Source: Rhabdothermincola salaria (lineage in GTDB: Bacteria > Actinomycetota > Acidimicrobiia > Acidimicrobiales > Acidimicrobilacustridaceae). From it: a DNA stretch of 64,000 bases. The position numbers and the translations under genes were made by a program. The notes beneath the pieces are model-generated. The model made no database searches. It was given only the letters and a program-made list of their open reading frames with translations, and was not told the DNA's origin. Positions 5,687-62,042 of the stretch are shown here, one piece after another; the first letter of the stretch is position 1, and the number at the start of each line of letters is the position of its first letter. The stretch is from NCBI RefSeq assembly GCF_021246445.1, contig NZ_JAJQXW010000001.1, forward strand, positions 1,196,168 through 1,260,167. Reading direction: 5' to 3'.

Positions 5687-5716
5687 CCGGTCCGCCGTGG
5701 CCCCTCCTGCGCCCGC

Positions 5717-5722: not shown

Positions 5723-5729
5723 CGGCGTC

Positions 5730-5939: not shown

Positions 5940-5957
5940 GACCCTGGGAGCGGGTCC
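5939..5957. terminator. Weak hairpin after the DUF3499 gene
   Basis: GGACCC pairs with GGGTCC around a 7-nt loop directly at the DUF3499 stop codon and before the ftsH promoter. There is no U-tract, so terminator activity is uncertain. Confidence 0.3.
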
Positions 5958-6020
5958 CACACGGCCCTCGCCGACGAATGGATGCCCCGCCCCGTGACGA
6001 GCATTTTCGGCAGCTCCATC

Positions 6021-6026
6021 TAGGCT
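6021..6026 (+). promoter_or_regulatory. -10 box TAGGCT of ftsH (leaderless type)
   Basis: TAGGCT is followed by six bases (TCGGAC) and then the ftsH ATG. No ribosome-binding site fits between them. Confidence 0.6.
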
Positions 6027-6032
6027 TCGGAC

Positions 6033-7991
<1,959 letters not shown>

Positions 7992-8070
7992 CCCCCGCCC
8001 GCTCCCGGACCCCGGCACCGCCGGCGTCCTCCTCGGCCCGGCCCGGGACGATCGGCGGGCCGCGGGTGGG

Positions 8071-8562
8071 TCAGGGGCTCTCGGGACGAGGGTTCTCGTC
8101 GGCTGCCGTCTCGTGGGCCTGGCACTCGCCAGGGGTGGAGCCGGGCGCACGGGCCTCGGCCACCGCGGCCCACAGGTCGGTGGCCGTCACCGGGCCGAGG
8201 AAGTGCCGCACCACCACACCGTCGGCGTCGGCGATCACCACGAGGGGCACGGCATCGATGCCGTAGCGCTCGTGCAGCTCGGCCTCGGCCCCGACCTCGA
8301 GCCCTTGGACCACGACCGGGCCTCCGGGTCCGGCGTCGAGGTGCCGGGCCTTGTCCCACACGCCGGCGCAGGTGTCGCACGTCGCCGAGGTGAACACCGC
8401 GACCAACCAGGGGGCGTCGGGCCGATCGAAGTCGCGGCGGTCGAGCTGGGCGGGAACCTGGAAGGCCGCACGGGTCGGGGGGTCGGCCTGGCGCCGCTGG
8501 AGCACGAGCGCGACCACCACGGCCACCACGACCACGATGGCGGCGATCACCAGCCGCTCCAC
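8071..8562 (-). CDS. Membrane-anchored thioredoxin-like protein
   Basis: The 163-residue protein has one N-terminal membrane helix (LVIAAIVVVVAVVVALVL, about 4-21) and a thioredoxin-fold domain facing the outside. The active-site-like motif is FTSATCDTCAG, a CxxC with Asp-Thr between the cysteines, followed by a cis-Pro region (GIDAVPLVVIADADG). It may be a thiol-disulfide oxidoreductase. I chose the GTG at 8562 (VERLVIAAI) because the longer reading frame overlaps the upstream gene. It starts 1 nt after the stop of the DUF5719 gene, so the two are probably co-translated. The redox partner is unknown. Confidence 0.8.
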   Translation of the reverse strand: MERLVIAAIVVVVAVVVALVLQRRQADPPTRAAFQVPAQLDRRDFDRPDAPWLVAVFTSATCDTCAGVWDKARHLDAGPGGPVVVQGLEVGAEAELHERYGIDAVPLVVIADADGVVVRHFLGPVTATDLWAAVAEARAPGSTPGECQAHETAADENPRPESP

Positions 8563-8563
8563 G

Positions 8564-45362: not shown

Positions 45363-47711
45363 TCACCACACCTTCCCCAGAGTGGCCGCCACGAAGGCCG
45401 CCGATCGCGCCAACGAGTACCCGGCGAGGATGTCGCGCCGGGCGCGCTCACCCTTGGCTCGACCGTCGTCGGGGTTCTCGAACAGGTGGCGCATCCATGC
45501 GGCCGCCTCGTCGATGTCGGGCTCGGCCCATGTCGCCTCGGGCGGGTACGGCCACGAACCGTCGCCGACCGGCGTGGGGGTCCAGGAGACCAGATAGCCG
45601 TTGTCGGCGTGCATGTAGTCGAGGTTGGCCGAGTACCCGGTGGCGATCACCGGCTTGGCGTGGGCCATGGCGTCGGCCAGCGTCTGGCCGAACCCTTCGG
45701 AACGGTGCAGCGAGACGTAGGCATCGATCAACGCGTACAGGGCCCGCATCGCCGTCCCGGAGAGGTGATCGTCGATGACCACGATGTCGTCGCGGTCGCC
45801 GATGGCGAGGCGCAACCGCTCGACGTCGGTGGCCCGATGCTGGCCGTTGATGGACTTGAGGACCAGTGCCGCACCATCTGTCGGCGCGAACGCTCGCTTC
45901 CAGGCCTCGACCAACCCGACCGGGTTCTTGCGCTCCATGATCGACAGGTGGTCGAAGAAGAAGCCGAAGAGGTAGCCCTCCGGGAGGCCCAGATCGGCCC
46001 GGGTGAGGTGGGTGGGCCCGCCGGGCAGCACCGGGTGAGGGAAGACCTCGACCGGGGTCTCCGTCCAGGCGGCGAAGAGCTCCTGGTTGTAGCGGCTCGC
46101 CACCCAGATCTCGTCCACGACATCGAACGCCGGGACCATGAACTCCGGCAGCCGGTCCACCTCCCAGAACCACAGGCCGATGTTGCGGCGGTCCTCCAGT
46201 ATCGGTCGATGCGCCGCGCTGGCGGCGAGCAGGGCGACCTCGTTCGGGTTCACCGAGAGGAGGTTGACGTCGTAGGGGCCGACGTCGACCTCGAGGGCAC
46301 GCCGCCCGGGGGGGAGACCGGGGTCGGGGAGGTCGAGGCGGTGGACCGGGAACCCAGCGGCCTCCACGGCGGTGCCCAGGGCGCGGGCGGCCTGCCCGAC
46401 GCCGCGGTCGAGTCCGAGGAACCCGACGACGTTGCATCCCGGTACGGGCTGCGGTCGGGGGTCGGGCTCCACCCCTGCCGCGATGAGCCCGTGCTCGGCT
46501 CCCTCCGGGGGTGCCCACTCCTGCAGCCACGCGTGGAAGCGAGCGGCATCGGCACCGTCGGGGTGCGGGAAGGTGATGCGCAGGTCGATCCGCTCGTCGA
46601 GCAGGCTCTGCCCCCATCGGCTCCGGGGATGCTCGATGGTGCCGCCCACGGGTTCGGCGAGCCACCTGCGATAGGCGTCGGGATCGCGGTCGTCGAACGG
46701 GTCCGGCGGAGGTGCTGTCCCTGCCGCCTCGGCGGCGAGGAGCTCTCGGCGGTAGGTGCTCCTCTGACGCTGGTCGATGTCGAGGCCGCAGGCCGCCGTG
46801 GCCAACGGCCAAGGGGCAGGGGGTGAGGGAAGGGACCGTTGCGCGGCCGTCAGGGCGTCGAGCCGGCCGGCCAGGAGCGCCCGCAGGGGCGGAGCGTCCG
46901 ACAGCCGCACCCGGGGACGGTCGCCCTGGTGCGCCGACAGCAACCACGGTCGCTGCGGATCGAAACCGCCGAAGTCGACGACGTGCAACGGCTCCCCGTC
47001 GACCGTCCAGCCGGTCTCGACGGACCCGTCCAACCGGCGCTCGTGGAGGTTGACGTAGCTCACCCCGACTCCAGGATCGGTGACCAACCGGGCCCCGAAC
47101 ACCACGAGGGCCTCGAGCCAGCGTCGGTCGAGCAGGAGTCCGCCCGGCGGGTCGAGCAGGCAGTCCCGTCGGGCACGGGCCTCCCACCACGCGAGCAGCT
47201 CGTCGGCGGCGCTGGTGACGGCCACGCAGCCGGGGTCGACCAACCCTTCGGTGAGCAGCGAGGCGTCGTCGATGCGCCGTCCGTCGTCCGGGAGCGGAGC
47301 TCGGACCCGGGGGACCAGGGCCAGCCCCTCGCCGGCCGCGGCGTCGAGGAGGGGTGAGAGGTCACCGTGGAGCTCGGAGTCGGCGTCGAGCCACACGGCC
47401 GTGTCGAAGCCGCGCTGCAACGCCAGGCGGAGCAGGGCGGGCTTGAGCGAGGTCAGGAGCTCGTCGGTGCCGGAGAAGGCCGCTCGGCGGTGCACCTCGG
47501 TGAGGCTCACCCCGACGGCAGCGAGATCGCTCCACGCCAACAGCTCGGCCCCGGGGACCGACGCGCCGCTCGCGGTGGGGGCCAGGCACGACATGGAGCT
47601 GTCGGGCATGTGACGAGACACCGACTCGGCCAACACCACGAGCGAGGGCAGGCTGGCCGGCCCCGCGGCCGACACGACCGCGACCGATCGGCCGGTCGCG
47701 CCGACGCTCAC
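45363..47711 (-). CDS. Two-domain glycosyltransferase: GT-A-like N-terminus plus GT4 C-terminus
   Basis: The 782-residue protein carries an N-terminal GT-A-like domain (about 1-330) with SLKPALLRLALQRGFDTAVWLDADSEL, whose DADSE resembles the DxD metal site of GT8-like enzymes. The C-terminal GT-B domain (about 395-780) has CNVVGFLGLDRGVGQAARALG, NIGLWFWEVDRLPEF, EIWVASRYNQELFA, FFFDHLSIMERKNPVGLVEAW and LHRSEGFGQTLADAMAHAKPVIAT. The GTG at 47711 overlaps the wzt stop by GTGA. Its position after the ABC exporter genes suggests work on the exported polymer. Whether the N-terminal domain is active is unclear. Confidence 0.83.
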   Translation of the reverse strand: MSVGATGRSVAVVSAAGPASLPSLVVLAESVSRHMPDSSMSCLAPTASGASVPGAELLAWSDLAAVGVSLTEVHRRAAFSGTDELLTSLKPALLRLALQRGFDTAVWLDADSELHGDLSPLLDAAAGEGLALVPRVRAPLPDDGRRIDDASLLTEGLVDPGCVAVTSAADELLAWWEARARRDCLLDPPGGLLLDRRWLEALVVFGARLVTDPGVGVSYVNLHERRLDGSVETGWTVDGEPLHVVDFGGFDPQRPWLLSAHQGDRPRVRLSDAPPLRALLAGRLDALTAAQRSLPSPPAPWPLATAACGLDIDQRQRSTYRRELLAAEAAGTAPPPDPFDDRDPDAYRRWLAEPVGGTIEHPRSRWGQSLLDERIDLRITFPHPDGADAARFHAWLQEWAPPEGAEHGLIAAGVEPDPRPQPVPGCNVVGFLGLDRGVGQAARALGTAVEAAGFPVHRLDLPDPGLPPGRRALEVDVGPYDVNLLSVNPNEVALLAASAAHRPILEDRRNIGLWFWEVDRLPEFMVPAFDVVDEIWVASRYNQELFAAWTETPVEVFPHPVLPGGPTHLTRADLGLPEGYLFGFFFDHLSIMERKNPVGLVEAWKRAFAPTDGAALVLKSINGQHRATDVERLRLAIGDRDDIVVIDDHLSGTAMRALYALIDAYVSLHRSEGFGQTLADAMAHAKPVIATGYSANLDYMHADNGYLVSWTPTPVGDGSWPYPPEATWAEPDIDEAAAWMRHLFENPDDGRAKGERARRDILAGYSLARSAAFVAATLGKVW

Positions 47712-48922
47712 GACCCTGCGGCCCCGCGAGGCGTGTCCCAGGTACCGCCGAGATCCAACAGGCCGGGGACGAGCCGCTTCCCCGGGCGCACCCACAGGGT
47801 GGCGGCGTTGTCGATGCGGTCGACCACCTCGACGCCGCGCGGGTCGTGGGCGGCCACGTTGAGCACGAAGCTCCCCGGCGCCAGGGGGAGGCGATCGATC
47901 CGGTAATCGACGATGCCCTCGCCCCGGAAGGGGCCGACCCCTTCGACCCGACCCTGCATCCCGGCGGTGGACAGGTGCTGCCCACCCTCGGAGTCGACGG
48001 CGAAGGAGAAGATCGGCCATTCGACGGTCTCACGGGCCCGCCAGTGGATGCGCACGGTGAGCGGTTCGCCGGTGAGCCCGAACTTGGTCGCTTCGCCGCT
48101 GCCGGTGAGGAACTCGACGCCTTCCACCGTGAGGGGTGTGGTTCGCTCCTCGGTGCGCTGCTTGGGGGCCTCGGCCGGGTGCGCCTCCTCCTCGTTGCGG
48201 TTGACCAGCTCGAGGTACTCGCCCACCACGTCGAGCGCCGCTCCCGTGGCCTTCACCTGGCCGTGGTCCATCCAGGTGGCGTGGTCGCACATGGTCTGCA
48301 CCAACGGCAGGCTGTGGGTGACCAGGACGATGGTCACCCCGCGGTTGCGCAGGGACGCCAGGTGCTCGAAGCACCGCCGCTGGAACTCCTCGTCCCCCAC
48401 GGCGATGACCTCGTCGATGAGGAGGATCTGAGGGTCGACGTGGACGGCGACGGAGAAGCCCAGGCGCACGAACATGCCGCTGGAGTAGTGCTTGACCGGC
48501 GAGTCGATGAACGCCTCGAGACCGGAGAAGGCGACGATGTCGTCGAAGAGCCGATCGGTCTCCTTGCGCTTGAGGCCCAGGATCGACGCGTTCAGGTAGA
48601 CGTTCTCCCGCCCGGTGAGCTCGGGGTGGAACCCGGCGCCGAGCTCGAGCAGCGCCGAGATGCGCCCTTCGGTGCGCACCGTGCCCTTGGTGGGCTTGTA
48701 GATGCCGGCCATCAGCCGCAGGAGGGTCGATTTACCGCACCCGTTGTGGCCGATCAGGCCGTAGACCGTGCCCTCCTCCACCTCGAGGCTCACGTCGCGG
48801 AGCGACCAGAAGTCCTCGTAGCGCTTGCTGGCGAACTTGGTGAAGATCTCCTTCACGCTGCCGGGACGGTCCTTGTAGAGCTTGAACCGCTTGGAGACGT
48901 CGTCGACCTCGATCACACCCAC
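47708..48922 (-). CDS. wzt: Polysaccharide ABC transporter ATPase with C-terminal glycan-binding extension (Wzt-like)
   Basis: The 404-residue ATPase drives export of a lipid-linked glycan. Its nucleotide domain has Walker [17 protein letters not shown], with Cys where Ala or Ser is usual, then GLEAFIDSPVKHYSSGMFVRLGFSVAVHVDPQILLIDEV (variant signature YSSGM and Walker B) and VLVTHSL. After about residue 250 an extra domain of about 150 residues matches the Wzt C-terminal beta-sandwich (FGLTGEPLTVRIHWRA, FSFAVDSEGGQHLST, RIDRLPLAPGSFVLNVAAHD), which in Wzt reads the polymer's terminal cap. The GTG at 48922 has GAGGAG 8 nt upstream. It begins 2 nt after the permease stop. Confidence 0.92.
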   Translation of the reverse strand: MGVIEVDDVSKRFKLYKDRPGSVKEIFTKFASKRYEDFWSLRDVSLEVEEGTVYGLIGHNGCGKSTLLRLMAGIYKPTKGTVRTEGRISALLELGAGFHPELTGRENVYLNASILGLKRKETDRLFDDIVAFSGLEAFIDSPVKHYSSGMFVRLGFSVAVHVDPQILLIDEVIAVGDEEFQRRCFEHLASLRNRGVTIVLVTHSLPLVQTMCDHATWMDHGQVKATGAALDVVGEYLELVNRNEEEAHPAEAPKQRTEERTTPLTVEGVEFLTGSGEATKFGLTGEPLTVRIHWRARETVEWPIFSFAVDSEGGQHLSTAGMQGRVEGVGPFRGEGIVDYRIDRLPLAPGSFVLNVAAHDPRGVEVVDRIDNAATLWVRPGKRLVPGLLDLGGTWDTPRGAAGS

Positions 48923-48924
48923 GC

Positions 48925-49728
48925 CTACAGCTCCTCGGTGATGTTGCGTGACTTGCGCACGAAGATCGACCATCCCACGACGAACGTGACAACGGAGGTC
49001 AGGATCACCCCGAGGAACGACGAGAGGCTCGGCCACTGCAGCAGGTAGAAGGCGTCGCGGGACCACTCCACGAACTGGCTGATGGGGTTCAACGAGATGA
49101 TCCGCCGCATGGGCAGGCCCCACAGCTGCTCGGGGACGATGCTCAGCGGGTAGATGATGGGGGTGGCGTAGAAGAGGAGGTTCATCAAGATCCCCACCAG
49201 GTAGCCCACGTCGCGGTAGTAGATGTTGTAGACGCTGAGGGCCAACCCGATCCCGATGGCGAACATGGTGACGAACACCAGCAGCAGCGGGAAGAGCAGG
49301 AAGGTGATGCTCACGTTCCCGATGATCACCATGACCAGGGCCAGGATGGCGCCCTCGATGATCGCCTGCAGCACCACCGTGATGGTGTTGGCGATGGCCG
49401 GGCAGGCGGGCGGGAAGTACACCTTGTTGAGCAGACCCCCGGCCTGCAGGGCCGCGATGGCCCCCATCACGGTGCCGTTGAAGAGGTTCCAGACGTAGAG
49501 CCCGGCGAAGAGGTACAGGGCGAAGACGTCGGTGCCGTTGCCCATCGGCGGGGGGGTCTGGCGCAGGAAGACGCCGAACACGACGCTGTAGATGAGCAGC
49601 ATCGACGCCGGGTTGATGAGCGACCAGAGCCAGCCGAGCAGGCTCTTCTTGTACCGAGCTCGGAGCTCGCGTTGTGCGAGGTTGTAGATCAGGCTTCGGT
49701 AGGCCCAGATCTCGGTGACAGCGGTCAA
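48925..49728 (-). CDS. wzm: ABC-2 type polysaccharide export permease (Wzm-like)
   Basis: The 267-residue permease has six hydrophobic helices and the ABC-2 pattern of Wzm/TagG: a cytosolic RSLIYNLAQRELRARYKKSLLGWLW start, then NPASMLLIYSVVFGVFL, FALYLFAGLYVWNLFNG, and the coupling region RDVGYLVGILMNLLFYATPIIYP. It forms the channel with the Wzt-like ATPase encoded next. The start is TTG at 49728 with GAGGAG 10 nt upstream, unusual in this window; no ATG or GTG fits better without removing the conserved N-terminus. Confidence 0.92.
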   Translation of the reverse strand: MTAVTEIWAYRSLIYNLAQRELRARYKKSLLGWLWSLINPASMLLIYSVVFGVFLRQTPPPMGNGTDVFALYLFAGLYVWNLFNGTVMGAIAALQAGGLLNKVYFPPACPAIANTITVVLQAIIEGAILALVMVIIGNVSITFLLFPLLLVFVTMFAIGIGLALSVYNIYYRDVGYLVGILMNLLFYATPIIYPLSIVPEQLWGLPMRRIISLNPISQFVEWSRDAFYLLQWPSLSSFLGVILTSVVTFVVGWSIFVRKSRNITEEL

Positions 49729-54062: not shown

Positions 54063-54068
54063 ACCCTA
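54063..54068 (-). promoter_or_regulatory. Possible -10 box TAGGGT overlapping a glycosyltransferase stop codon
   Basis: The TAG stop of the glycosyltransferase gene forms the start of TAGGGT, which would begin a transcript about 28 nt before the GT-C-like gene's GTG. Confidence 0.35.
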
Positions 54069-55331
54069 GCTTCCGGGCCTGAGGTCGCCGGGCAACGCAG
54101 ACCGGTCGGCGGCCAACCGTGGACGTGTGCACCAGTCCGCGAGCGGAGCGGCGGCGCTCGACCACGTGGACCGGGCCGCCCGCGAGGCGATCCGCGCCGA
54201 CCGCCGCCGAGCTGTCTCGGCGGTCTCGCCGGCGAGCGACCGCAGCGCCGCCGCCACGGCCCCGGCGCTCCCGAAGGGAACGACCGCGCCGAGCTCCTCC
54301 CCCTCCACGATGTCGGCGAAGTGATCACCCTGCGTGCACAGGATCGGAAGACCGGCCCACAGGTAGTCGAGGATCCTGGTGCGGAACGAGAACGTGGTCT
54401 CGACGTGGTCGTGGTGGAGGCTGACCCCGATGTCCGCCGAGAGCAACCAGTCCCCCCGCTCGGCGTAGGGCACCCATCGTTCGACGAGCACGACCCGCCG
54501 ACCCAGCACGCCGAGGTCGTCGGCGAGCTGCCGGGTGCGCTCGACCAGCGGCGAGGCCCCCACTGCCGGGGTGGGGTGGGGTCCGGCGAGGAAGACGGCG
54601 ACCACCCGCTCGTCCTCGCACCGCGCCACTGCCCGGACGAGGGTCAGGGGATCGAGCCAGCCGTAGAGCCCCCCGCCCCACAGCGCCACCACCGCGTCGT
54701 CGGCCACCAGCCCGGCCGATCCGCGCAGCGGATCCCCCCCGGTCGGCTCCGGTGGGTCGCTGGGGGTCCCGAAGGGCACGACGGCGCAGAGCGACCGCAG
54801 GGTGGGGTCCTCGGCCACGGTCCGGGGGTTCACCCGTCCGGCGGCCACGAGCAGGCCCAGCACCAGGTGGCGCTGACGTTCGCTGGCGACCAGCACCAGG
54901 TCGGCCCGCTCGAGCGGATCGAGGAGGTGACGGCGGGCGGCCGACACCCAATCCCGCTGCTCGTTGACGGGTGAGCCCTGGAACCGCACCAGCGTCTCGA
55001 GCAGCCCGGGATCGTAGGCGTCGACCACGACCGGGATCCCCAGCTCGAAGATCCACGGCCGCTCGGCCAGCACCGCGGAGAACCCCACGACAGCGTCGGC
55101 CCCCTGCAGCCTCGCCCGCACGGCCTCGTCGTCCTCGACCGCCGAGACCGGCGGTGTCCCGGCCGGAAGGGGGCCGCTGACCTCGGGGGCCAGGACCTCC
55201 ACCGGATGCCCTTCGGCGGCGAGCGCCCGGGCCAGTTCGACCGCCCTGATGGCCGGCCCGGCCATGAGGGGCCCGACCGGGTCCCCGGTCAGGAAGCAGA
55301 TCCGGCCCGCACCCCTCGCCGTCGCGTTCAA
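54066..55331 (-). CDS. GT4-like glycosyltransferase
   Basis: The 421-residue GT-B protein begins RICFLTGDPVGPLMAGPAIRAVELARAL and has VVGFSAVLAERPWIFELGIPVVVDAYDP, LVASERQRHLVLGLL, VVALWGGGLYGWLDPLTLVRAV and TFSFRTRILDYLWAGLPILCTQGDHFADIV. Each block has a counterpart in the C-terminal half of the fused enzyme at 42490-44964, so they are paralogues. The start is TTG at 55331, overlapping the flippase stop (TTGA), which suggests translational coupling. Donor unknown. Confidence 0.86.
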   Translation of the reverse strand: MNATARGAGRICFLTGDPVGPLMAGPAIRAVELARALAAEGHPVEVLAPEVSGPLPAGTPPVSAVEDDEAVRARLQGADAVVGFSAVLAERPWIFELGIPVVVDAYDPGLLETLVRFQGSPVNEQRDWVSAARRHLLDPLERADLVLVASERQRHLVLGLLVAAGRVNPRTVAEDPTLRSLCAVVPFGTPSDPPEPTGGDPLRGSAGLVADDAVVALWGGGLYGWLDPLTLVRAVARCEDERVVAVFLAGPHPTPAVGASPLVERTRQLADDLGVLGRRVVLVERWVPYAERGDWLLSADIGVSLHHDHVETTFSFRTRILDYLWAGLPILCTQGDHFADIVEGEELGAVVPFGSAGAVAAALRSLAGETAETARRRSARIASRAARSTWSSAAAPLADWCTRPRLAADRSALPGDLRPGS

Positions 55332-56656
55332 ATCTCGATGGGTTCGTGCTCGATGGCCTCGACCAGCGGTTCGATGCCGATCCCCTCGGCCAACCCGATC
55401 CGCGACCAGGTGGCGAAGCCCATGGCGGTGGCCGCGGCCGCCGATCCGACGATGAAGCCGATCTCGACCCTCAGCTCCAGATCGGGGATGATCGCGATCA
55501 CGGCGAGGCAGGCCAGCAGGCCGAGGGCCCAGGAGCCCGCCATCAGCTTGTGCCCACCCAGGGCCATGAGCGCCTGGGCGAGGGTCATGGCGACGATGAA
55601 CGCGCCGCTGCCGGCGGCCAGTAGACCGAGGCCGGTGGCTCCGAGGTTGAAGTCGTTGAACAGGATGCGCCCGACGAAGGGGCCCACGGTGAAGGCCCCG
55701 ATGGCGCCCAGGACGGCCACGCCCACGACGACGAGCAACAGCTTCTGGAGCCCCACGCGGAACTCGTCGTGGCGCCCGGACCCGGCCAGCCCGGCGAGCT
55801 TGGGCAGCAGCGTGCCCTGTATCGCCTGGAACGCCAGCACCGGCACGCGGGCGACGAAGAACGCGGAGGCGAACCCGGCGGCCAGGACGGCTTCGTCCGG
55901 GCCGCTGAGCAGGTTCACGGCCAGCAGGGGCGAGTAGGCCAGCGACTGGGTCAGCACCGACCCCAGCATCAGCCAGCCCAGGGCGGCCGAGAGCTCGCTG
56001 TACGGCGCGTCGGGTCCCGTCTCGAGCAGACCTCGCTGGCGCCGCAGGGCGAAGGCGGCGGCGAAGAACGGGGCGATGGCCAGCACCATGGCGTAGGCGC
56101 CGGCGCGGTCCACCCCGACCCCCGCCAGCGCGAGGGCGCCCACGAGGCGCAGGATGCCCTCGGCGGCCAGCAGCTCGCCGTAGGCCCGGAACCGACCCTG
56201 CCCGGCGAGCACGCCGCGCGTGAGGTGCACGACGTAGAACCCGATGAGGCCCACCACGATCGCGGGCACGAACAGCATGTCGCCGTGGTAGAGGCGATCG
56301 TTGAGCAGCGGCGTCGACGCCACCGACGCGATGATCAGGACCAGGGTGATGAGGCCGCCCAGGCGGGCCGCCCGGTGCACCAGGGGGCCGCCGCCGAGGC
56401 CCTGCGCCCGGCGGTGGGCGACCGCTCGGCCCACCTCCTGTTCGAGGGGGAGGAAGAAGCCGGGCCCGGCCACGAAGATGACCGCCCAGAACGCCGAGAA
56501 GGCCGCGGCTGCGCCGCCGACGAGCGAGTTCAGGGAGATGACGACGAAGACGTACGAGGTGAGGGCGGCGACGGCCAGGCCGGCACCGACCGACGTCGTG
56601 CCCTCGGGCAGCGTCTGACGGGCCTGGGCGGCGATCCGCGTGGCCTTGGCCTTCAT
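55328..56656 (-). CDS. Polysaccharide flippase (Wzx/MATE-like, MOP superfamily)
   Basis: The 442-residue protein has 12-14 hydrophobic helices and the look of oligosaccharide flippases: SYVFVVISLNSLVGGAAAAFSAFWAVIFV near the N-terminus, FYVVHLTRGVLAGQGRFRAYGELLAAEGILRLV in the middle, and the duplicated half beginning ELSAALGWLMLGSVLTQSL. It would flip lipid-linked repeat units to the outer face. The ATG overlaps the stop of the oxidoreductase gene (ATGA) and its own stop overlaps the next glycosyltransferase, so sugar synthesis, flipping and transfer are in one transcript. Confidence 0.85.
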   Translation of the reverse strand: MKAKATRIAAQARQTLPEGTTSVGAGLAVAALTSYVFVVISLNSLVGGAAAAFSAFWAVIFVAGPGFFLPLEQEVGRAVAHRRAQGLGGGPLVHRAARLGGLITLVLIIASVASTPLLNDRLYHGDMLFVPAIVVGLIGFYVVHLTRGVLAGQGRFRAYGELLAAEGILRLVGALALAGVGVDRAGAYAMVLAIAPFFAAAFALRRQRGLLETGPDAPYSELSAALGWLMLGSVLTQSLAYSPLLAVNLLSGPDEAVLAAGFASAFFVARVPVLAFQAIQGTLLPKLAGLAGSGRHDEFRVGLQKLLLVVVGVAVLGAIGAFTVGPFVGRILFNDFNLGATGLGLLAAGSGAFIVAMTLAQALMALGGHKLMAGSWALGLLACLAVIAIIPDLELRVEIGFIVGSAAAATAMGFATWSRIGLAEGIGIEPLVEAIEHEPIEI

Positions 56657-57627
56657 CGGGTGGCCTCGGCGACCCGGGCCGAACCGACGATCTGGTCGAG
56701 GACCTCGTGCGGAGGAAGGATGGAACGGCGCTCCGCGTCGACGTCGCCGGCGCCTGCGGCCAGTGCCACGAAGTGCTCGAGCTGGGTGACCAGGGGCTCG
56801 CGGGCGTCGAGGATGGCCGGGATGTCGATCACCGTCTGCTGGCGGTAGCCGGTCTGGCGGCCCTCGAGGAAGTCGGCGCCCACGTGGTGGTACACGGTGA
56901 TGTCACGCCGGAGCAGGTCGACCTCGATGAGACGTTCGAGCTCGGCGACCTGCAGGGTGCGCAGCTTGCGCTGGGAGACCCGGCTGGCCGAGAGGCCCGC
57001 CACCAGACCCCGGGGGAACGACAGCGCGATCTCCGCGATGTCCTCGGAGCCCGGCGGGGACGTGGGGTGGCACCTCGAGAGCTGGGCCTGCACGCGATCG
57101 GGGCGCTCACCGGCCAGCCGGATGGCGAGGTCGACGTCGTGGATGGCGAGGTCGAACGCCACGCCCTGGGTGATGCGCGGCGTGTGCGGCGAGTGGCGCA
57201 CCACGTTCACGTGGACGGGGTTCTCGACGATCTCGTGCATCTTGAGCACTGCCGGGTTGAACCGCTCGAGCAGCCCGCAGACGAGCGGGACGCCGTTGGC
57301 CTCGGAGGCCTCGACCAACCGACGGGCCTCGTCGAGATCCTGCGACAGCGGCTTCTCGACCAGCGTGGGACGACCGGCGTCGAGCGACCGCAGCGCCCAC
57401 TCGAGGTGGGTCTCGCTGGGCGTGGCCACGACGAGGGCGTCGATCGCGCCGAAGTCATCGAGGTCGGGGACCCACTTCGAGCCCCACGTCTCGGCGGTGG
57501 CCAGTCCTCGCGTGGCGTCGGTGTCGACGACGAAGGTGAGCTCGGTCGAGAGGTGCTGGGCGATGACCCGGGCGTGCAGCGAGCCCATCATCCCCGAGCC
57601 CACGAGGGCGATCCGTAGTGGCGACAT
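56653..57627 (-). CDS. Gfo/Idh/MocA oxidoreductase, probable UDP-N-acetylglucosamine 3-dehydrogenase (GnnA/WlbA-like)
   Basis: The 324-residue NAD-dependent enzyme starts IALVGSGMMGSLHARVI (nucleotide loop). It has the catalytic Lys motif LVEKPLSQDLDEARRLV and a substrate-domain GVAFDLAIHDVDLAIRLAGE with the conserved Asp and His. Such enzymes oxidise C3 of UDP-GlcNAc or its uronic acid. The DegT aminotransferase and LpxA-fold acyltransferase 1-3 kb upstream match the next steps toward a 3-amino or 3-acylamino sugar. The ATG has TACTTT 9 nt upstream. Substrate assignment is inference from context. Confidence 0.82.
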   Translation of the reverse strand: MSPLRIALVGSGMMGSLHARVIAQHLSTELTFVVDTDATRGLATAETWGSKWVPDLDDFGAIDALVVATPSETHLEWALRSLDAGRPTLVEKPLSQDLDEARRLVEASEANGVPLVCGLLERFNPAVLKMHEIVENPVHVNVVRHSPHTPRITQGVAFDLAIHDVDLAIRLAGERPDRVQAQLSRCHPTSPPGSEDIAEIALSFPRGLVAGLSASRVSQRKLRTLQVAELERLIEVDLLRRDITVYHHVGADFLEGRQTGYRQQTVIDIPAILDAREPLVTQLEHFVALAAGAGDVDAERRSILPPHEVLDQIVGSARVAEATR

Positions 57628-57636
57628 TCGTGATCG

Positions 57637-57642
57637 AAAGTA
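57637..57642 (-). promoter_or_regulatory. -10 box TACTTT of the oxidoreductase-flippase-glycosyltransferase operon
   Basis: TACTTT lies 9 nt before the ATG at 57627, predicting a leader of zero to three bases. Confidence 0.5.
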
Positions 57643-57712
57643 CCACCGGCGCGTCGGCGGCCCGGGAACCCCGGCGGGTGCCGTGGGGCGCCGTTGGGCG
57701 CCCCGGAGCGGG

Positions 57713-58900
57713 CTAGGGCCGGTTCTCGGCGATCGCCCGTTCGTAGAGGTCGAGGTGGGCGGCGGTCACGGCCTCCATGGAGAAGCGCTCCTCGATGAGG
57801 CGCCGCCCACCCTCTCCGACCTGGCGCCGTAGAGCCGGGTCGTCGAGCAGCCGCACGAACGCGTCGGCGATGCCTCGGAGATCGCCGGCGCGGGCCAGCA
57901 GCACGTTCTCGCCGTCGACGAGACGACCGGTCGGGTAGTTGTCGGGGAGCGCGGTGGTCACCACCGGCACCCCGGCCGCCAGCATCTCCAGGCTGGCGGT
58001 GCCGAAGCCGAGATCCTGCAGGTCGTGGGCCTCGACGTCCGCCGCCGCCGCGAAGTCCGGCACCTCGTGCTTGGGCACCGCGCCGGTGACGATGAGCGAC
58101 CCGTCCACGCCCAACTCCTTCGCCCGCCGCTCGAAGCGGTCGTCGTAGACGTGACCGACCACCACCACGGCCACGTCGGGAACCTTCTCGAGGATGCGAG
58201 GCATGGCCTCGACCAGGGCGAGACGATCGCGGAGCGGGATGACGTGGCCCAACGACAGGATCGTCGGGCGGTCGCCGATGCCGAGGCGATCTCGCACCGT
58301 CGCCCCGTCGCCGGTGGTGAAGCGGTCGGTCTCGACCCCCACCGGGATGTCGACGACGTGGTCCTCGGCGATGCCGTAGCGGGCTCGCACGTACGTGTGC
58401 ACCGGACCGTCGACCGCCACCACCCACGGCCGCGACGCCCGCACGAGGGCCCGCACCACCGTGAGGTCGCCCGCGGCCATCACCCCGCCGTGCAGGCGGC
58501 TGGGGCTGATGAGGCGGGTGTGCACCGACAGTACGACGGGGACGTGGCGACGCCGAGCCCACAGGGTGCTCATCCAGGTCAGGTCGAAGAACTGCCCGTG
58601 CTGGTGGACGACGTCGGGTGCGAACTCGTCGAGGAGCCGGAACGCCCGACGGATGTTCCGCGGGGAGGCTGCGAACGGGATGTCGTAGTTGAACGCCAGC
58701 CGCGACGTGGGCGCGAACCCCGGGAGTCGCACCACCCGCAACCCCCCGACCGTCTCCTCGGGCGGGGCGTCGGGGAACGACGAGGTGATGACCATCACCT
58801 CGTGGCCGGCCTCGGCGCAGTGGCGGGCCACCGCCTCGCTCAGGTGGGCGCTGCCCCCGGCCCGCGGCGGGAAAAAGGCGTTGACGACGGCGATGCGCAC
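57713..58900 (-). CDS. GT4 glycosyltransferase
   Basis: The 395-residue GT-B enzyme starts RIAVVNAFFPPRAGGSAHLSEAVARHCAEAGHEV and has DVVHQHGQFFDLTWM, VVLSVHTRLISPS, LSLGHVIPLRDRLALVEAM and DLGFGTASLEMLAAGVPVVTT. The usual E-x7-E donor motif is altered: the first Glu position reads Asp-Leu-Gly-Phe-Gly, though the later Glu (SLEML) is kept. The GTG at 58900 begins 9 nt after the aminotransferase stop, so the two are in one operon. It may transfer the amino sugar made by its neighbours. Confidence 0.86.
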   Translation of the reverse strand: MRIAVVNAFFPPRAGGSAHLSEAVARHCAEAGHEVMVITSSFPDAPPEETVGGLRVVRLPGFAPTSRLAFNYDIPFAASPRNIRRAFRLLDEFAPDVVHQHGQFFDLTWMSTLWARRRHVPVVLSVHTRLISPSRLHGGVMAAGDLTVVRALVRASRPWVVAVDGPVHTYVRARYGIAEDHVVDIPVGVETDRFTTGDGATVRDRLGIGDRPTILSLGHVIPLRDRLALVEAMPRILEKVPDVAVVVVGHVYDDRFERRAKELGVDGSLIVTGAVPKHEVPDFAAAADVEAHDLQDLGFGTASLEMLAAGVPVVTTALPDNYPTGRLVDGENVLLARAGDLRGIADAFVRLLDDPALRRQVGEGGRRLIEERFSMEAVTAAHLDLYERAIAENRP

Positions 58901-58909
58901 GGTACCGGT

Positions 58910-60019
58910 CTAGTTCCCGAAGGCTCGGCGCACTGCGGTGACCACCTGGTCGAGGTCGCCGGAGGTGAGGTGGGGGTGCACGGGCAGGCTGAGCACCTCG
59001 GCGGCGGCGCGTGCGGCGTTGGGGGTCTCACCGGCGACGACCCCCGGGTGGTCCTGGTAGCAGGCGTAGTCGTGCACCAGCCGGGGGTAGTAGATGCCGC
59101 TGCCCACACCCGCGTCGGCCAGGCGCTCGCCCAGCTCGTCTCGGGTGAGCGGGGCGTCGTCGGTCACCCGGACGGTGTACTGGTGGTAGACGTGGCGCCG
59201 CCCCGCGACCTCGGGGGGCGTCACCAGCCCCTCGAGGCCACTGAGGCCTTCGTCGAGGGCGGCGGCGTTGGCCCGCCGGGCCTCGGTGATCTCGTCGAGA
59301 CGTTTCATCTGGGGGATGCCCACCGCCGCCTGCAGGTCGGTCATGCGGTAGTTGTGCCCCGCCAGCTCGTACTGGTAGCGGGCCCGCATCCCCTGGTTGC
59401 GCAGGAGGCGGAGCCGATCGGCCAGGTGGTCGTCGTCGGTGGTGACCACTCCCCCCTCGCCGGTCGTGACGTTCTTGGTGGCGTACAGCGAGAAGCAGGC
59501 CTGGCCGAACGCACCCACCCGGCGGCCGTGGACCTCCGCCCCGTGGGCCTGGGCGGCGTCTTCGACGACGGCGAGACCGTGGCGCTCGGCCATCGGGACG
59601 AGCGCGTCCATGTCTGCGGCCTGGCCGTAGAGGTGCACCGGCATCAGGACCCGGGTCCGGTCGGTCAGCGCACCCTCCACCGACGCCGCGTCGAGCCCGA
59701 AGTCGTCGAGGTCGATGTCGGCGAAGCGCACGGTGGCCCCGGCCTCGAGGGCGGCGTTGAGGGTGGCCACGAAGGTGAACGGGGTGGTCACCACCTCGTC
59801 GCCCGGTTCGAGCTCGAGCGCCTGGAGCGCGGCCACGAGGGCGGTGGTGCCGTTGTTGACGGCGACTGCGTGACGAGCACCGGTCATGGCGCTGAAGAGC
59901 TCTTCGAGGCGGGCGACCTTCGCACCCTGGGCGAGCATCCCCGATCGGAGCACCTCCAGCACCAGCTGCTCCTCGGCCTCGCCGAAGCGCACGGTGGTGA
60001 TGGGAACAGTGATCGTCAT
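58910..60019 (-). CDS. DegT/DnrJ/EryC1 family sugar aminotransferase (GnnB/WbpE-like)
   Basis: The 369-residue PLP enzyme aminates a keto-sugar nucleotide, probably with glutamate. It shows GARHAVAVNNGTTALVAALQAL (cofactor phosphate), TTPFTFVATLNAAL, the Asp-containing LAVVEDAAQAHGAEV, the PLP Lys in CFSLYATKNVTTGEGGVV, and the C-terminal HVYHQYTVRV and GIYYPRLVH. These are hallmarks of sugar aminotransferases acting at C3 or C4. With the dehydrogenase downstream and the acyltransferase divergent upstream, 3-amination of a UDP-GlcNAc derivative is the best guess. The ATG at 60019 is the first before the fold. Confidence 0.88.
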   Translation of the reverse strand: MTITVPITTVRFGEAEEQLVLEVLRSGMLAQGAKVARLEELFSAMTGARHAVAVNNGTTALVAALQALELEPGDEVVTTPFTFVATLNAALEAGATVRFADIDLDDFGLDAASVEGALTDRTRVLMPVHLYGQAADMDALVPMAERHGLAVVEDAAQAHGAEVHGRRVGAFGQACFSLYATKNVTTGEGGVVTTDDDHLADRLRLLRNQGMRARYQYELAGHNYRMTDLQAAVGIPQMKRLDEITEARRANAAALDEGLSGLEGLVTPPEVAGRRHVYHQYTVRVTDDAPLTRDELGERLADAGVGSGIYYPRLVHDYACYQDHPGVVAGETPNAARAAAEVLSLPVHPHLTSGDLDQVVTAVRRAFGN

Positions 60020-60099
60020 GTGATGGCCCGCATAGCGTCCAAGATGGTAGTCACCCGCCGTTCCGGTCCAGACGACCGGTCCACCACCTGAGGGATGCG

Positions 60100-60825
60100 A
60101 TGCCCCGTCCTGCCGCCATCCACCGCACGGCCATCGTCGCACCCGAGGTCGAGATCGGCGAGGGGACGGTGATCGGCCCCTACGCGGTGGTCGTGGCACC
60201 GTGCCGCATCGGCGACGACTGCTGGATCGGCCCTCATGCCGTGGTGGGCACCACCGCCGAGCACGTCGGCGAGATGGTCGTGCAGACAGTGGCATCGGAG
60301 GGTCCAGCTCCGACCGACGAGGAGATGTGGTTCGGTCGTCACGGCCGAGGGGTGCAGATCGGTTCGCGGACGATCCTCCGAGAGCGCTGCACGGTCCACT
60401 CGGGGACCGCCGGCCCGACCGTCATCGGAGACGACGTGTTCATGATGAACACGTCGCACGTGGCCCACGACGGCGTCCTCGGCGATCGGGTCCGGATGGC
60501 CAGCTACTCGACGTTGGGGGGCCACGTGACCATCGGCGACGACGCCAACATCGGCCTGGCGGCTGCGGTGCACCAGTGGCGGGTGGTCGGCGCCGGCGCC
60601 ATGGTCGGCATGCAGGCTGCCGTCGTGAAGGACGTGGCGCCGTACCAGCTGGTCAAGGGCGTGCCCGCCGCCCCCGGCGGGGTGAACGCGGTCTGGCTGG
60701 AGCGCGCAGGCTATTCCGCGGCCGACATCGCCGGACTGACCCGCTTCTACGAGGGCGAGGCCGACGCCCTCCCGGCCGCGTTCGCCGACGCGCTGGCGTT
60801 GTGGGAGGCGTCGCGCCGAGCCTGA
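60100..60825 (+). CDS. LpxA-like acyltransferase (left-handed beta-helix)
   Basis: The 241-residue protein is built of hexapeptide repeats (IHRTAIVAPEVEIGEGTVIGPYAVV...) like UDP-GlcNAc O/N-acyltransferase LpxA. The putative catalytic His lies in MMNTSHVAHDGVLGD, matching the HIAHDC region of LpxA. The C-terminal PYQLVKGVPAAPGGVNAVWLERAGYSAADIAGL matches its helical end. There is no other sign of lipid A synthesis here, so it probably acylates the amino sugar made by the divergent aminotransferase and the oxidoreductase. GAGGG lies about 5 nt upstream of the ATG. Whether the acyl group is acetyl or longer cannot be told. Confidence 0.84.
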   Translation: MPRPAAIHRTAIVAPEVEIGEGTVIGPYAVVVAPCRIGDDCWIGPHAVVGTTAEHVGEMVVQTVASEGPAPTDEEMWFGRHGRGVQIGSRTILRERCTVHSGTAGPTVIGDDVFMMNTSHVAHDGVLGDRVRMASYSTLGGHVTIGDDANIGLAAAVHQWRVVGAGAMVGMQAAVVKDVAPYQLVKGVPAAPGGVNAVWLERAGYSAADIAGLTRFYEGEADALPAAFADALALWEASRRA

Positions 60826-60909: not shown

Positions 60910-61320
60910 TCAGCTGCTGGGCTGTCCCGGCGGCTCCGGCGACTCGTCGCTGCGGGTCGCAGGTCCCCCCGAGGATCCGAGTGCGGGCGGCTCAGCGTCA
61001 TCGCTCGAGAGCAGTGCCACTTCCTGGGCGAGGACCTCGACCCGCTCCTCCAGGCGGCTCACGTGCACCGTGAGGTTGATGCAGACGATCAGCAGGAAGA
61101 CGAAGGCCAGAGCGAAGACCAGGCTGGTGCCGTACACGATGCCGATGGCGCTCGAGAGGCGGTCGACGAGCGGTCGAGCGAGCCCCAGGAGCACGCCCAT
61201 GACGCCGACCCCGAGCCACAGCAGGGCGTAGTTCTCCGAGAGGCGCCGCCGCCGCACCACCTCGAGGATCACGACCAACAACACGATGGCCAACGACAAC
61301 ACCGCGATCTCGAGCTTCAC
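60910..61320 (-). CDS. DUF2304 family membrane protein
   Basis: The 136-residue protein has three membrane helices (about 4-23, 32-50 and 62-84: IAVLSLAIVLLVVILEVV, YALLWLGVGVMGVLLGLA, SLVFALAFVFLLIVCINLTV). A short coiled coil follows (VSRLEERVEVLAQEVALL), then an acidic/Pro-rich tail, matching DUF2304. Such proteins commonly follow a GT2 polyprenyl-phosphate glycosyltransferase, as here: the GTG overlaps the GT2 stop by GTGA. A role as membrane partner of that enzyme is inferred. Confidence 0.86.
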   Translation of the reverse strand: MKLEIAVLSLAIVLLVVILEVVRRRRLSENYALLWLGVGVMGVLLGLARPLVDRLSSAIGIVYGTSLVFALAFVFLLIVCINLTVHVSRLEERVEVLAQEVALLSSDDAEPPALGSSGGPATRSDESPEPPGQPSS

Positions 61321-62042
61321 GATCCCCCTCCGACGAGTGCAGGCCGACGGAACCGATGGATGGAGACCACCAGCATGAGCCGTACCAGGTGGAACACGCT
61401 CTTGATCCTGCCCGCCGACGCGCGACCGCCCATCCGTTCGCGCATGCGGACGGGCACCTCGGCGATGCGCAACCCGTCGTCGTGCGCCAGCAGCAGAGCC
61501 TCCACCGTGTCCGACAGGTACTGCGACGGGTAGCTCGCAGCGAAGCGGTCGACGGCGCGGGCGCTGAAGGCCCGGAACCCACTCGTCGTGTCCGTGATCT
61601 CGACACCGAGGCGCCGCGACACCGTGCGCGACAGGGCCCGCATGCTCAGCCGGCGCAGTCCCGAGACCTGGTATCCCTCGGCGAACCTGGACCCCACGAC
61701 GAGATCGACGCCTCCGTCGACGACCGCCGCGACCAGAGCATGGGCTCCCGCGGTGTCGTGCTGGCCGTCGGCATCGACCTGGATCACGACCGGGTACCCG
61801 GTCCTTCGCGCGTACTTGAAACCGGTGCGCAGCGCCGCCCCCACCCCGAGGTTGAAGGGGTGTCGGACGACCACGGCCCCGGCGTCCCTCGCCAACAGGG
61901 CCGTTCGGTCGCTCGAGCCATCGTCGATCACCAGCACATCGGCCTCGAGATCGCCGATGATCGCTTTGACGACGTCGCCGACAGTCGCTTCTTCGTTGAG
62001 TGCGGGCACGATGGCGAGCAACGTGCCATGCGGGTCGGCCAC
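61317..62042 (-). CDS. GT2 glycosyltransferase, polyprenyl-phosphate hexose transferase type
   Basis: The 241-residue GT-A enzyme has LLAIVPALNEEATVGDVV, VLVIDDGSSDRTALLARDAGAVVVRH, NLGVGAALRTGFKYA and the metal site VDADGQHD, then DTTSGFRAFSARAVDRFA. It lacks C-terminal membrane helices; the co-translated DUF2304 protein may anchor it. It resembles the dolichol-phosphate mannosyltransferase branch. The GTG at 62042 has TAGGGT 6 nt upstream, a leaderless-type promoter. Confidence 0.88.
   Translation of the reverse strand: MADPHGTLLAIVPALNEEATVGDVVKAIIGDLEADVLVIDDGSSDRTALLARDAGAVVVRHPFNLGVGAALRTGFKYARRTGYPVVIQVDADGQHDTAGAHALVAAVVDGGVDLVVGSRFAEGYQVSGLRRLSMRALSRTVSRRLGVEITDTTSGFRAFSARAVDRFAASYPSQYLSDTVEALLLAHDDGLRIAEVPVRMRERMGGRASAGRIKSVFHLVRLMLVVSIHRFRRPALVGGGS

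What the first reader, a model, noticed from the sequence alone, without database searches (positions are those of the whole stretch)
56653..60825. GnnA/GnnB/LpxA-like trio in a presumed Gram-positive-type actinobacterium
A UDP-GlcNAc 3-dehydrogenase-like oxidoreductase, a DegT aminotransferase and an LpxA-fold acyltransferase lie within 4 kb. In Acidithiobacillus and Leptospira, GnnA, GnnB and LpxA make 3-amino, N-acylated lipid A precursors. Here no other lipid A gene is seen, so the trio may make an acylated 3-amino-3-deoxy sugar for a surface glycan or glycolipid. The genes are split over two operons with a glycosyltransferase and a flippase.
Basis: inference. Interest (0 to 1): 0.5.

Follow-up and report, generated by a model that had tools for sequence, protein, structure and literature searches.

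The report
Actinobacterial sugar-acylating LpxA gene cassette
A group of single-membrane bacteria carries a conserved gene set resembling the first steps of endotoxin (lipid A) synthesis, which probably attaches a short acid to an amino sugar for the cell surface instead of making endotoxin.

Summary
The trio is real. A Gfo/Idh/MocA oxidoreductase, a DegT aminotransferase and an LpxA-type acyltransferase lie at 56653-60825 with a GT4 gene; the quartet is syntenic in two relatives. The oxidoreductase scores best with A. ferrooxidans GnnA, the acyltransferase with LpxA. LpxC, LpxB and LpxD were not found in the genome.

It is not a local oddity. Of 35 actinobacterial loci with this acyltransferase, 28 hold both partners within 9 kb, and 24 hold ACP, AMP-ligase, LuxE and LuxC genes (23 also a reductase) beside it. 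In a tree of 28 such acyltransferases and nine Gram-negative LpxA the two sets separate fully (100/100). The catalytic dyad, oxyanion glycine and several UDP contacts are kept, but both channel glycines (E. coli G155, G173) are bulky in 28 of 28.

Best reading: UDP-GlcNAc goes through 3-keto and 3-amino forms to a 3-N-(short acyl) sugar for a surface polysaccharide. One subclade probably uses a dedicated acyl-ACP. The window's subclade lacks that module; its donor (housekeeping acyl-ACP or acyl/acetyl-CoA) is open. Nothing was assayed; the aminotransferase's GnnB role rests on linkage. New variant of a known kind.

The parts
56653..57627 (-). GnnA-like oxidoreductase (P0001): predicted UDP-GlcNAc 3-dehydrogenase
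   Evidence: best solved structure 7bvj, 92.9 bits against 62.7 for the next; model matches 7bvj (title: GnnA of A. ferrooxidans) at Z 35.2, rmsd 2.1, 297 aligned
57713..58900 (-). GT4 glycosyltransferase (P0002), between the two sugar genes
   Evidence: Pfam Glyco_transf_4 and Glycos_transf_1; homologue at 250 bits or more in 24 of 35 actinobacterial loci
58910..60019 (-). DegT-type sugar aminotransferase (P0003): predicted GnnB role (3-amino)
   Evidence: Pfam PF01041, 405.6 bits; co-conserved with the GnnA-like gene; nearest solved structures are perosamine synthetases
60020..60099 (.). 80-bp divergent intergenic region between aminotransferase and acyltransferase
   Evidence: sequence; divergent arrangement within 400 bp in 24 of 28 loci that hold the aminotransferase
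60100..60825 (+). LpxA-type acyltransferase (P0004): predicted N-acylation of the 3-amino group
   Evidence: NCBIfam LpxA 198.6 bits, cut-off 226; PDB LpxA 119 bits; model matches E. coli LpxA at Z 28.8, rmsd 1.9, 214 aligned; active-site map
55328..56656 (-).
   Evidence: no Pfam or NCBIfam match; conserved in G001 and G004
54066..55331 (-). GT4-like glycosyltransferase downstream
   Evidence: Pfam Glyco_trans_1_4
47708..48922 (-). Wzt-type ABC exporter ATPase with Wzt_C domain
   Evidence: Pfam ABC_tran and Wzt_C
48925..49728 (-). Wzm-type ABC-2 exporter membrane protein
   Evidence: Pfam ABC2_membrane
61317..62042 (-). GT2 glycosyltransferase, followed by DUF2304 gene at 60910-61320
   Evidence: Pfam Glycos_transf_2 and DUF2304; best NCBIfam hit polyprenyl-phospho-GalNAc synthase, 129 of 370 bits

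Best explanation
A nucleotide-sugar pathway for a surface polysaccharide. Step 1 (inferred from family): the GnnA-like enzyme oxidises C3 of UDP-GlcNAc with NAD. Step 2 (inferred from linkage): the DegT enzyme transaminates the 3-ketone to UDP-GlcNAc3N. Step 3 (inferred from family and active site): the LpxA-type enzyme, with His123/Asp124 as catalytic dyad and Gly141 as oxyanion hole, moves an acyl group onto the 3-amine. Because two glycines of the LpxA acyl channel are bulky in all rows compared, the chain is probably shorter than that of the C10 enzyme of P. aeruginosa. In one actinobacterial subclade the acyl group is probably supplied as acyl-ACP by a dedicated module of ACP, SDR reductase, AMP-ligase, LuxE and LuxC (a short 3-hydroxyacyl group is my guess). 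In the window's subclade, which lacks the module, the donor is a housekeeping acyl-ACP or an acyl-CoA. The acylated sugar is then used by glycosyltransferases such as the neighbouring GT4 in a polysaccharide whose locus holds a Wzm/Wzt exporter and an LCP protein. It is not lipid A.
For: Oxidoreductase: 7bvj 92.9 bits, next 62.7; family profile 121.9 bits, against 104.8 for an inositol dehydrogenase and 45.8 for WlbA 3q2k (3q2k is named WlbA). Acyltransferase: LpxA by sequence and by model; H125, D126, G143, Q161, N198, R204 (E. coli numbering) kept in 28 of 28 Gram-positive rows, H160 in 27, H144 in 26. G173 is M and G155 is L/M in 28 of 28; both are G or A in 8 of 8 Gram-negative comparison rows. 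G173M turns E. coli LpxA to C10, and Met169 is the C10 ruler of P. aeruginosa (passages). Linkage: 28 of 35 loci hold GnnA-like and aminotransferase genes, 24 hold ACP+LuxE+LuxC, 21 hold all of these; the ACP match starts within 700 bp after the acyltransferase end (20) or overlaps it by 4-7 bp (4) in all 24, and 24 of 24 ACP have the motif WDS[VL]GH. GnnA-like proteins of the 18 LpxA-like-bearing loci given to the tree fall in one 19-row clade, 100/99. LpxC: 0 of 17 genomes; LpxB: 0 of 5; LpxD N-domain: 0 of 6. Wzm/Wzt and LCP in the window and RmlB/C/D-type genes just past it. No WbpA-type dehydrogenase matched in the 35 actinobacterial loci.
Against: Nothing was assayed. The aminotransferase scores best with perosamine synthetase (262 bits; WbpE 194, QdtB 187; same order with the profile); that the first works at C4 and the others at C3 is recalled. 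The acyltransferase falls below NCBIfam's LpxA cut-offs (198.6 of 226; 178.6 of 231). In one search the LpxA sugar loop is changed (Q73 and K76 in 28 of 28, D74 in 27; alignment there uncertain), the uracil contact R205 is kept in only 9 of 28 (P0004 has A; 4 of 8 Gram-negative rows), H122, which contacts the acyl 3-hydroxyl in E. coli, is replaced in 7 of 28, and the chain cap H191 is P in 28 of 28 (also P in 3 and R in 5 Gram-negative rows). A short LpxA-like N-acetyltransferase for a diacetamido sugar is solved (8e62, Z 25.0), so acetyl-CoA cannot be excluded. The window's genome has no LuxE. Six of 35 loci have the acyltransferase but neither partner in the DNA held, and one more lacks the aminotransferase at the threshold used; three of these seven are cut short on at least one side (L050, L054, L059), four are not counting L040's contig end (L043, L044, L051 have full flanks).
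Confidence: 0.57

Rival explanations
1. The trio makes a plain 3-acetamido sugar (UDP-GlcNAc3NAc or a derivative): the LpxA-type protein is an acetyl-CoA-dependent N-acetyltransferase, like the short LpxA-like Psychrobacter enzyme 8e62 or WlbB, and no fatty or hydroxy acid is involved.
For: 8e62 aligns to the model at Z 25.0 over 179 residues, up to residue 240, and WlbB at 24.1 over 158; the bulky channel residues suit a very short acyl group; the window's subclade has no ACP module in the DNA held and no LuxE in the genomes searched; in haloarchaeal plasmids a related oxidoreductase/aminotransferase pair sits with a short acyltransferase.
Against: LpxA rows lead the fold list (Z 28.8 over 214); in the sister subclade an ACP gene adjoins the acyltransferase in 24 of 24 module loci, which an acetyl-CoA enzyme would not need.
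Confidence: 0.25
2. The pair belongs to a hexuronic-acid pathway (WbpA/B/E/D type): the oxidoreductase acts on UDP-GlcNAcA and the product is a 2,3-diacylamido uronic acid.
For: Haloarchaeal relatives of the pair are next to a nucleotide-sugar dehydrogenase, and the aminotransferase of G055 has one about 3.5 kb away. The own genome has such a gene elsewhere (L038, best equivalog UDP-ManNAc dehydrogenase).
Against: No such dehydrogenase matched in the 35 actinobacterial LpxA-like loci; the one in the window, 27 kb away, is of the UDP-glucose type (TuaD-like 418 bits, TviB-like 67 bits); WlbA scores far below GnnA by sequence.
Confidence: 0.07
3. A deoxysugar pathway: the aminotransferase works at C4 (or C3) of a 4-keto-6-deoxy sugar, and the oxidoreductase is a sugar 3-ketoreductase.
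For: Perosamine synthetase and PseC are the best-scoring named aminotransferases; an epimerase/dehydratase-type gene lies in 27 of 35 loci and RmlB-type genes lie past the window; the predicted fold of the oxidoreductase is nearly as close to KijD10 (Z 33.4) as to GnnA (35.2).
Against: By sequence the oxidoreductase scores 92.9 bits with GnnA and 32.5 with KijD10; in L052 the epimerase-type gene sits beside the second aminotransferase, not this one; the acyltransferase is of the UDP-GlcNAc LpxA type.
Confidence: 0.08
4. Remnant of a lipid A pathway or O-acylation of UDP-GlcNAc for a membrane glycolipid.
For: LpxA-like fold and catalytic residues; an LPG_synthase_TM membrane protein is in 28 of 35 loci.
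Against: No LpxC, LpxB or LpxD found; channel glycines replaced in 28 of 28; conserved amino-sugar partners.
Confidence: 0.03

Closest known systems
GnnA/GnnB/LpxA branch of lipid A synthesis (Acidithiobacillus, Leptospira; UDP-GlcNAc3N)
   Same: Same three enzyme classes; the oxidoreductase's best match is A. ferrooxidans GnnA; LpxA catalytic residues kept.
   Different: No LpxC, LpxB or LpxD found; the acyltransferases separate from nine Gram-negative LpxA, with a narrowed acyl channel and a changed sugar loop; polysaccharide locus. That GnnA/GnnB feed LpxA in those two genera is recalled; gnnA and gnnB functions as listed in PMC7663294 (passages).
WbpB/WbpE/WbpD (WlbA/C/B) 2,3-diacetamido uronic acid pathway (recalled), and haloarchaeal plasmid sets
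   Same: Oxidoreductase, DegT aminotransferase and left-handed beta-helix acyltransferase acting at C3; the Halobaculum aminotransferase is 53% and the oxidoreductase 36% identical.
   Different: The two haloarchaeal sets viewed have a nucleotide-sugar dehydrogenase and a short acyltransferase; neither is part of this cassette.
ACP / 3-oxoacyl-ACP reductase / AMP-synthetase / LuxE / LuxC module of Aeromonas flagellin glycosylation islands (group II)
   Same: The same five genes, listed in the same order, beside glycan genes (PMC7874193, passages); similar genes in Enterobacteriaceae islands (PMC4875605, passages).
   Different: There the Aeromonas paper places it among pseudaminic acid genes and transferases; here it adjoins an LpxA-type acyltransferase and GnnA-like and aminotransferase genes, and it is missing from the window's own subclade.

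Membership tests
LpxA (UDP-GlcNAc acyltransferase) | Left-handed beta-helix plus C-terminal helical domain | tested here: met
   model pLDDT 88.1; E. coli LpxA Z 28.8, rmsd 1.9, 214 aligned; Pfam Acetyltransf_11 31.4 bits, cut-off 24.5
LpxA (UDP-GlcNAc acyltransferase) | Catalytic His-Asp dyad, oxyanion Gly and contacts Q161, N198, R204 (E. coli numbering) | tested here: met
   28 of 28 rows
LpxA (UDP-GlcNAc acyltransferase) | Uracil contact R205 | tested here: not met
   P0004 has A; R in 9 of 28 rows and in 4 of 8 Gram-negative rows
LpxA (UDP-GlcNAc acyltransferase) | GlcNAc loop Q73, D74, K76 | tested here: not met
   Q73 and K76 0 of 28, D74 1 of 28; loop alignment uncertain; K76 is also absent from 3 of 8 Gram-negative rows
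LpxA (UDP-GlcNAc acyltransferase) | NCBIfam curated cut-off | tested here: not met
   198.6 of 226 and 178.6 of 231.05 bits
LpxA (UDP-GlcNAc acyltransferase) | Companion lipid A enzymes LpxC, LpxB, LpxD | tested here: not met
   0 of 17, 0 of 5, 0 of 6 genomes
LpxA (UDP-GlcNAc acyltransferase) | Transfers R-3-hydroxyacyl from ACP to UDP-GlcNAc or UDP-GlcNAc3N | not testable with these tools
   needs an enzyme assay
GnnA (UDP-GlcNAc 3-dehydrogenase) | Scores best with solved A. ferrooxidans GnnA among Gfo/Idh/MocA members | tested here: met
GnnA (UDP-GlcNAc 3-dehydrogenase) | NCBIfam UDP-GlcNAc 3-dehydrogenase (archaeal equivalog) cut-off | tested here: not met
   best-scoring family but 138.5 of 450 bits; the haloarchaeal relative also misses it, 203 of 450
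GnnB (UDP-3-keto-GlcNAc aminotransferase) | Grouping with authentic GnnB | not tested
GnnB (UDP-3-keto-GlcNAc aminotransferase) | Gene next to a GnnA-like gene | tested here: met
   27 of 28 loci adjacent on one strand within 150 bp; in the window a GT4 gene lies between them
WbpB/WbpE/WbpD hexuronate pathway | UDP-GlcNAc 6-dehydrogenase in the set | tested here: not met
   none matched in the 35 actinobacterial LpxA-like loci

The most novel reading that the evidence does not exclude
Single-membrane Actinobacteria own a separate LpxA lineage that puts a short, ACP-borne (perhaps 3-hydroxy) acyl group on N3 of UDP-GlcNAc3N for wall or surface polysaccharides: a counterpart, outside lipid A, of the first acylation step of lipid A, with its own ACP and acyl-activating module in one branch and a switched donor in the other.
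Probability: 0.4. Interest if true: 0.7.

Novelty: new variant of a known kind. Interest (0 to 1): 0.55.

Why it matters
If right, LpxA chemistry is not confined to outer-membrane bacteria. Cultured actinomycetes, among them Amycolatopsis and Saccharothrix, would carry an N-acylated 3-amino sugar that my literature searches did not turn up, and a natural pair of sister groups with and without a dedicated ACP would allow a direct test of how an LpxA-type enzyme changes donor and chain length. Naming these genes as lipid A enzymes would be misleading.

Tried and rejected
Lipid A in an unusual actinobacterium: rejected, because LpxC, LpxB and LpxD were not found while the same searches ring in Gram-negative-type control genomes. 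The LpxB control is less clean: it rings in 6 of 14 genomes, Bacillus subtilis and Lactococcus lactis among them, and is over the cut-off in 4. A dedicated ACP module for the window itself: looked for through LuxE and not found in G000, G001, G004, G014, G019, nor in six further genomes without the module at the locus, whereas the four module genomes tested ring. WlbA-type oxidoreductase: WlbA is listed but lower (Z 30.9 against 35.2; 45.8 against 121.9 bits). A test of the aminotransferase against real GnnB could not be done.

Rows dropped before counts: in the phylum draw 8 of 396 genomes match at 1e-20; I count the 4 with 150 bits or more (G000, G282, G368, G440). The others score 121 bits or less: G055 and G314 have stops inside the match; G373 and G055 overlap LpxD-like hits; G268 has two distant LpxA-like genes beside a DegT gene and may be a remote relative; for G314 and G440 the gene caller gave no genes, so their neighbourhoods were not read. 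Without the own genome 2 of 3 strong carriers also have the GnnA-like gene, against 15 of 395 (hypergeometric 0.004): few cases. Eleven Amycolatopsis rows of the 35 were left out of A3, of the residue counts and of the tree. The GnnA-like tree used 18 of the LpxA-like-bearing loci.

Literature: the listings of ten searches showed no title or abstract on an LpxA, GnnA or GnnB set in Actinobacteria; listed papers were read only as the passages cited, one search listed 15 of 58, and most subscription papers are not in the library.
Full report
1. Observation. The three genes are open reading frames at the stated place: oxidoreductase 56653-57627 (-), aminotransferase 58910-60019 (-), acyltransferase 60100-60825 (+), with a GT4 gene at 57713-58900 (-). 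Aminotransferase, GT4, oxidoreductase and the next gene lie on one strand (gaps of 9 and 85 bp, overlap of 4 bp); the acyltransferase is divergent over 80 bp. The quartet is syntenic in G001 and, moved as a block to another place in the locus, in G004.

2. Oxidoreductase. Its best solved relative is 7bvj (92.9 bits, residues 4-289; next 62.7). The fold comparison names 7bvj as UDP-GlcNAc 3-dehydrogenase GnnA of Acidithiobacillus ferrooxidans and ranks it first: Z 35.2, rmsd 2.1, 297 aligned, against 33.7 for GenD2, 33.4 for KijD10 and 30.9 for WlbA (model pLDDT 89). With the family profile GnnA scores 121.9, an inositol 2-dehydrogenase 104.8 and WlbA (3q2k) 45.8 bits. It does not reach the NCBIfam archaeal UDP-GlcNAc 3-dehydrogenase cut-off (138.5 of 450 bits).

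3. Aminotransferase. It is a DegT family member that scores best with perosamine synthetase (262 bits), then a scyllo-inositol transaminase (248), 2oga (229; DesV, a 3-aminotransferase, by recall), ArnB-type enzymes (up to 223), WbpE (194) and QdtB (187) (similar order with the profile). Similarity alone does not say C3 or C4. Its partner suggests C3: in 27 of 28 actinobacterial loci it is adjacent to the GnnA-like gene on one strand, and in two haloarchaeal plasmids viewed a related aminotransferase (53% identical in Halobaculum) is next to a related oxidoreductase (36%). Authentic GnnB could not be compared.

4. Acyltransferase. LpxA leads by sequence (118.9 bits) and by fold (E. coli LpxA Z 28.8, rmsd 1.9, 214 aligned; L. 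interrogans LpxA 26.2; short LpxA-like N-acetyltransferase 8e62 25.0; WlbB 24.1; QdtC 22.3). It stays below NCBIfam's LpxA cut-offs (198.6 of 226 bits). In an alignment with E. coli LpxA (28 Gram-positive rows, 8 Gram-negative rows) H125, D126, G143, Q161, N198 and R204 are kept in 28 of 28, H160 in 27, H144 in 26, H122 in 21, H99 in 18 and R205 in 9 (P0004 has A). G173 is M in 28 of 28 and G155 is L or M in 28 of 28; the 8 Gram-negative rows have G or A at both. The roles of these residues come from passages of PMC6286764, PMC7072397, PMC4322802 and PMC6408518: G173M turns E. coli LpxA into a C10 enzyme, and Met169 is the C10 ruler of P. aeruginosa LpxA, whose Gly151 (equal to E. coli G155 by the same numbering offset, inferred) also touches the chain. 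Two bulky residues instead of one suggest a chain shorter than C10; this is inference, without a ligand model. The sugar loop (Q73, K76) is changed in all 28 rows; PMC7072397 reports the Lys position changed in L. interrogans and B. thailandensis too.

5. Distribution. A scan of named genomes gave 44 loci: 35 actinobacterial, 8 from Gram-negative groups and one 47-residue match. Of the 35, 29 hold a GnnA-like gene, 28 the aminotransferase, 28 both, 24 ACP, AMP-ligase, LuxE and LuxC (23 of them also the reductase at the threshold used), and 21 both partners plus ACP, LuxE and LuxC (each locus holds at most 9 kb on each side, some less). Carriers with both partners include Amycolatopsis, Saccharothrix, Actinoalloteichus, Prauserella, Streptoalloteichus, Longimycelium, Actinokineospora, Geodermatophilus, Blastococcus and Aeromicrobium. 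Seventeen of the 35 are Amycolatopsis, so counts are not independent. In an even draw of 396 genomes of the phylum the acyltransferase is rare: 8 match at 1e-20, of which I count 4 as this family. GnnA-like genes at 1e-40 are in 16 of 396 and the aminotransferase at 1e-100 in 24 of 396.

6. The ACP module. Beside the acyltransferase in 24 loci stand an ACP (WDS[VL]GH in 24 of 24; Pfam PP-binding 20.7 bits for the L052 copy, just under its cut-off of 20.8), an SDR reductase (23), an AMP-binding ligase, LuxE and LuxC (Pfam for L052). The same five genes, listed in the same order, are described in Aeromonas flagellin glycosylation islands (PMC7874193, passages), and similar sets in Enterobacteriaceae islands, where a liposugar component is suggested (PMC4875605, passages). 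G282 gives a case in another family. This makes an ACP-bound donor likely in that branch.

7. Trees. The 28 Gram-positive acyltransferases given are one side of a branch with 100/100 support against 9 Gram-negative LpxA. One subclade of 16 rows (100/98) holds all 14 module-bearing rows of the tree; its other two are L059, with only about 1 kb held downstream, and L073. In the other 12 rows, the window among them, no module was seen in the DNA held, and LuxE is absent from the 11 genomes without the module that were searched whole, L073's included. GnnA-like proteins of the 18 LpxA-like-bearing loci given form a clade of 19 (100/99) with one further member, G281, which has the pair but no LpxA-like gene in the 20 kb read or in the phylum search.

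8. No lipid A. LpxC is absent from 17 of 17 genomes, LpxB from 5 of 5 and the LpxD N-domain from 6 of 6; Gram-negative-type controls ring, though the LpxB model also rings in two Gram-positive ones.

9. Setting. The window locus holds Wzm/Wzt with a Wzt_C domain (47708-49728) and an LCP protein (29572-30705); past its end lie RmlB-, RmlC- and RmlD-type genes, a pyruvyl transferase and a sugar nucleotidyltransferase. This looks like a surface-polysaccharide locus; attachment to the wall by the LCP protein is inference. No WbpA-type dehydrogenase matched in the 35 actinobacterial loci; one occurs elsewhere in the own genome (L038), and the intein-bearing dehydrogenase in the window is of the UDP-glucose type.

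10. Verdict. Most likely a pathway to a UDP-GlcNAc derivative N-acylated at C3 for a surface polysaccharide. Shown here: gene content, synteny, clade structure, residue pattern, lipid A genes not found. Inferred: every catalytic step, the short chain, the ACP donor in one branch, the destination. The main rival is plain acetylation from acetyl-CoA. On checking, R205, the SDR count and the epimerase-type gene in 27 of 35 loci were added; the confidence moved from 0.58 to 0.57 and the deoxysugar rival from 0.07 to 0.08.

Noticed in passing
window 26883-29537 (-): A UDP-glucose-type dehydrogenase (884 aa) is interrupted by an intein with a LAGLIDADG domain (intein N- and C-terminal splicing regions at residues 257-342 and 692-715). 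A homologue of about the same length stands in G004 (L035 13256-15913, 71% identity).
   Followed up: partly
L034 14384-18555 (G004) against window 56653-60825: The acyltransferase/aminotransferase/GT4/oxidoreductase block sits at another place of the locus in G004, between the homologues of window genes 41388 and 42445, so it seems to move as a unit.
   Followed up: yes
L052 764-4722 and similar loci: Many actinobacterial loci also hold a second DegT aminotransferase, an NAD-dependent epimerase-type gene (27 of 35) and a short hexapeptide acyltransferase (21 of 35) near a relative of the window's GT4: a second amino-sugar set.
   Followed up: partly
L077 5789-6739, L078 about 10533-11267, L079 10698-11639: GnnA-like oxidoreductases (34-37% identical to P0001) lie close to lpxA in two Deltaproteobacteria MAGs and one Acidobacteriota MAG, with no P0003-like aminotransferase matched nearby.
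   Followed up: no
L137, L138 (haloarchaeal plasmids): Short acyltransferase, aminotransferase, GnnA-like oxidoreductase and nucleotide-sugar dehydrogenase in one row on plasmids of Halobaculum and Haloterrigena.
   Followed up: partly
L128 (G281) 8478-11779: A GnnA-like and aminotransferase pair related to this one without an LpxA-like gene, beside a UDP-GlcNAc 2-epimerase-like gene (my reading of the sequence): which enzyme acylates there is unknown.
   Followed up: no
L135 (G268) 7667-10430: Two distant LpxA-like genes (29-30% identical to family members) beside a DegT aminotransferase gene: perhaps a remote version of the set.
   Followed up: no
L139 (Streptomyces plasmid) 2877-5008, 5525-6157: An aminotransferase and a distant Gfo/Idh/MocA oxidoreductase near a gene annotated as OmpA family, on a linear Streptomyces plasmid.
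   Followed up: no
35 actinobacterial loci: An LPG_synthase_TM membrane protein is conserved in 28 of 35 acyltransferase loci; its role in the pathway (perhaps moving a lipid-linked sugar) is unexplained.
   Followed up: no
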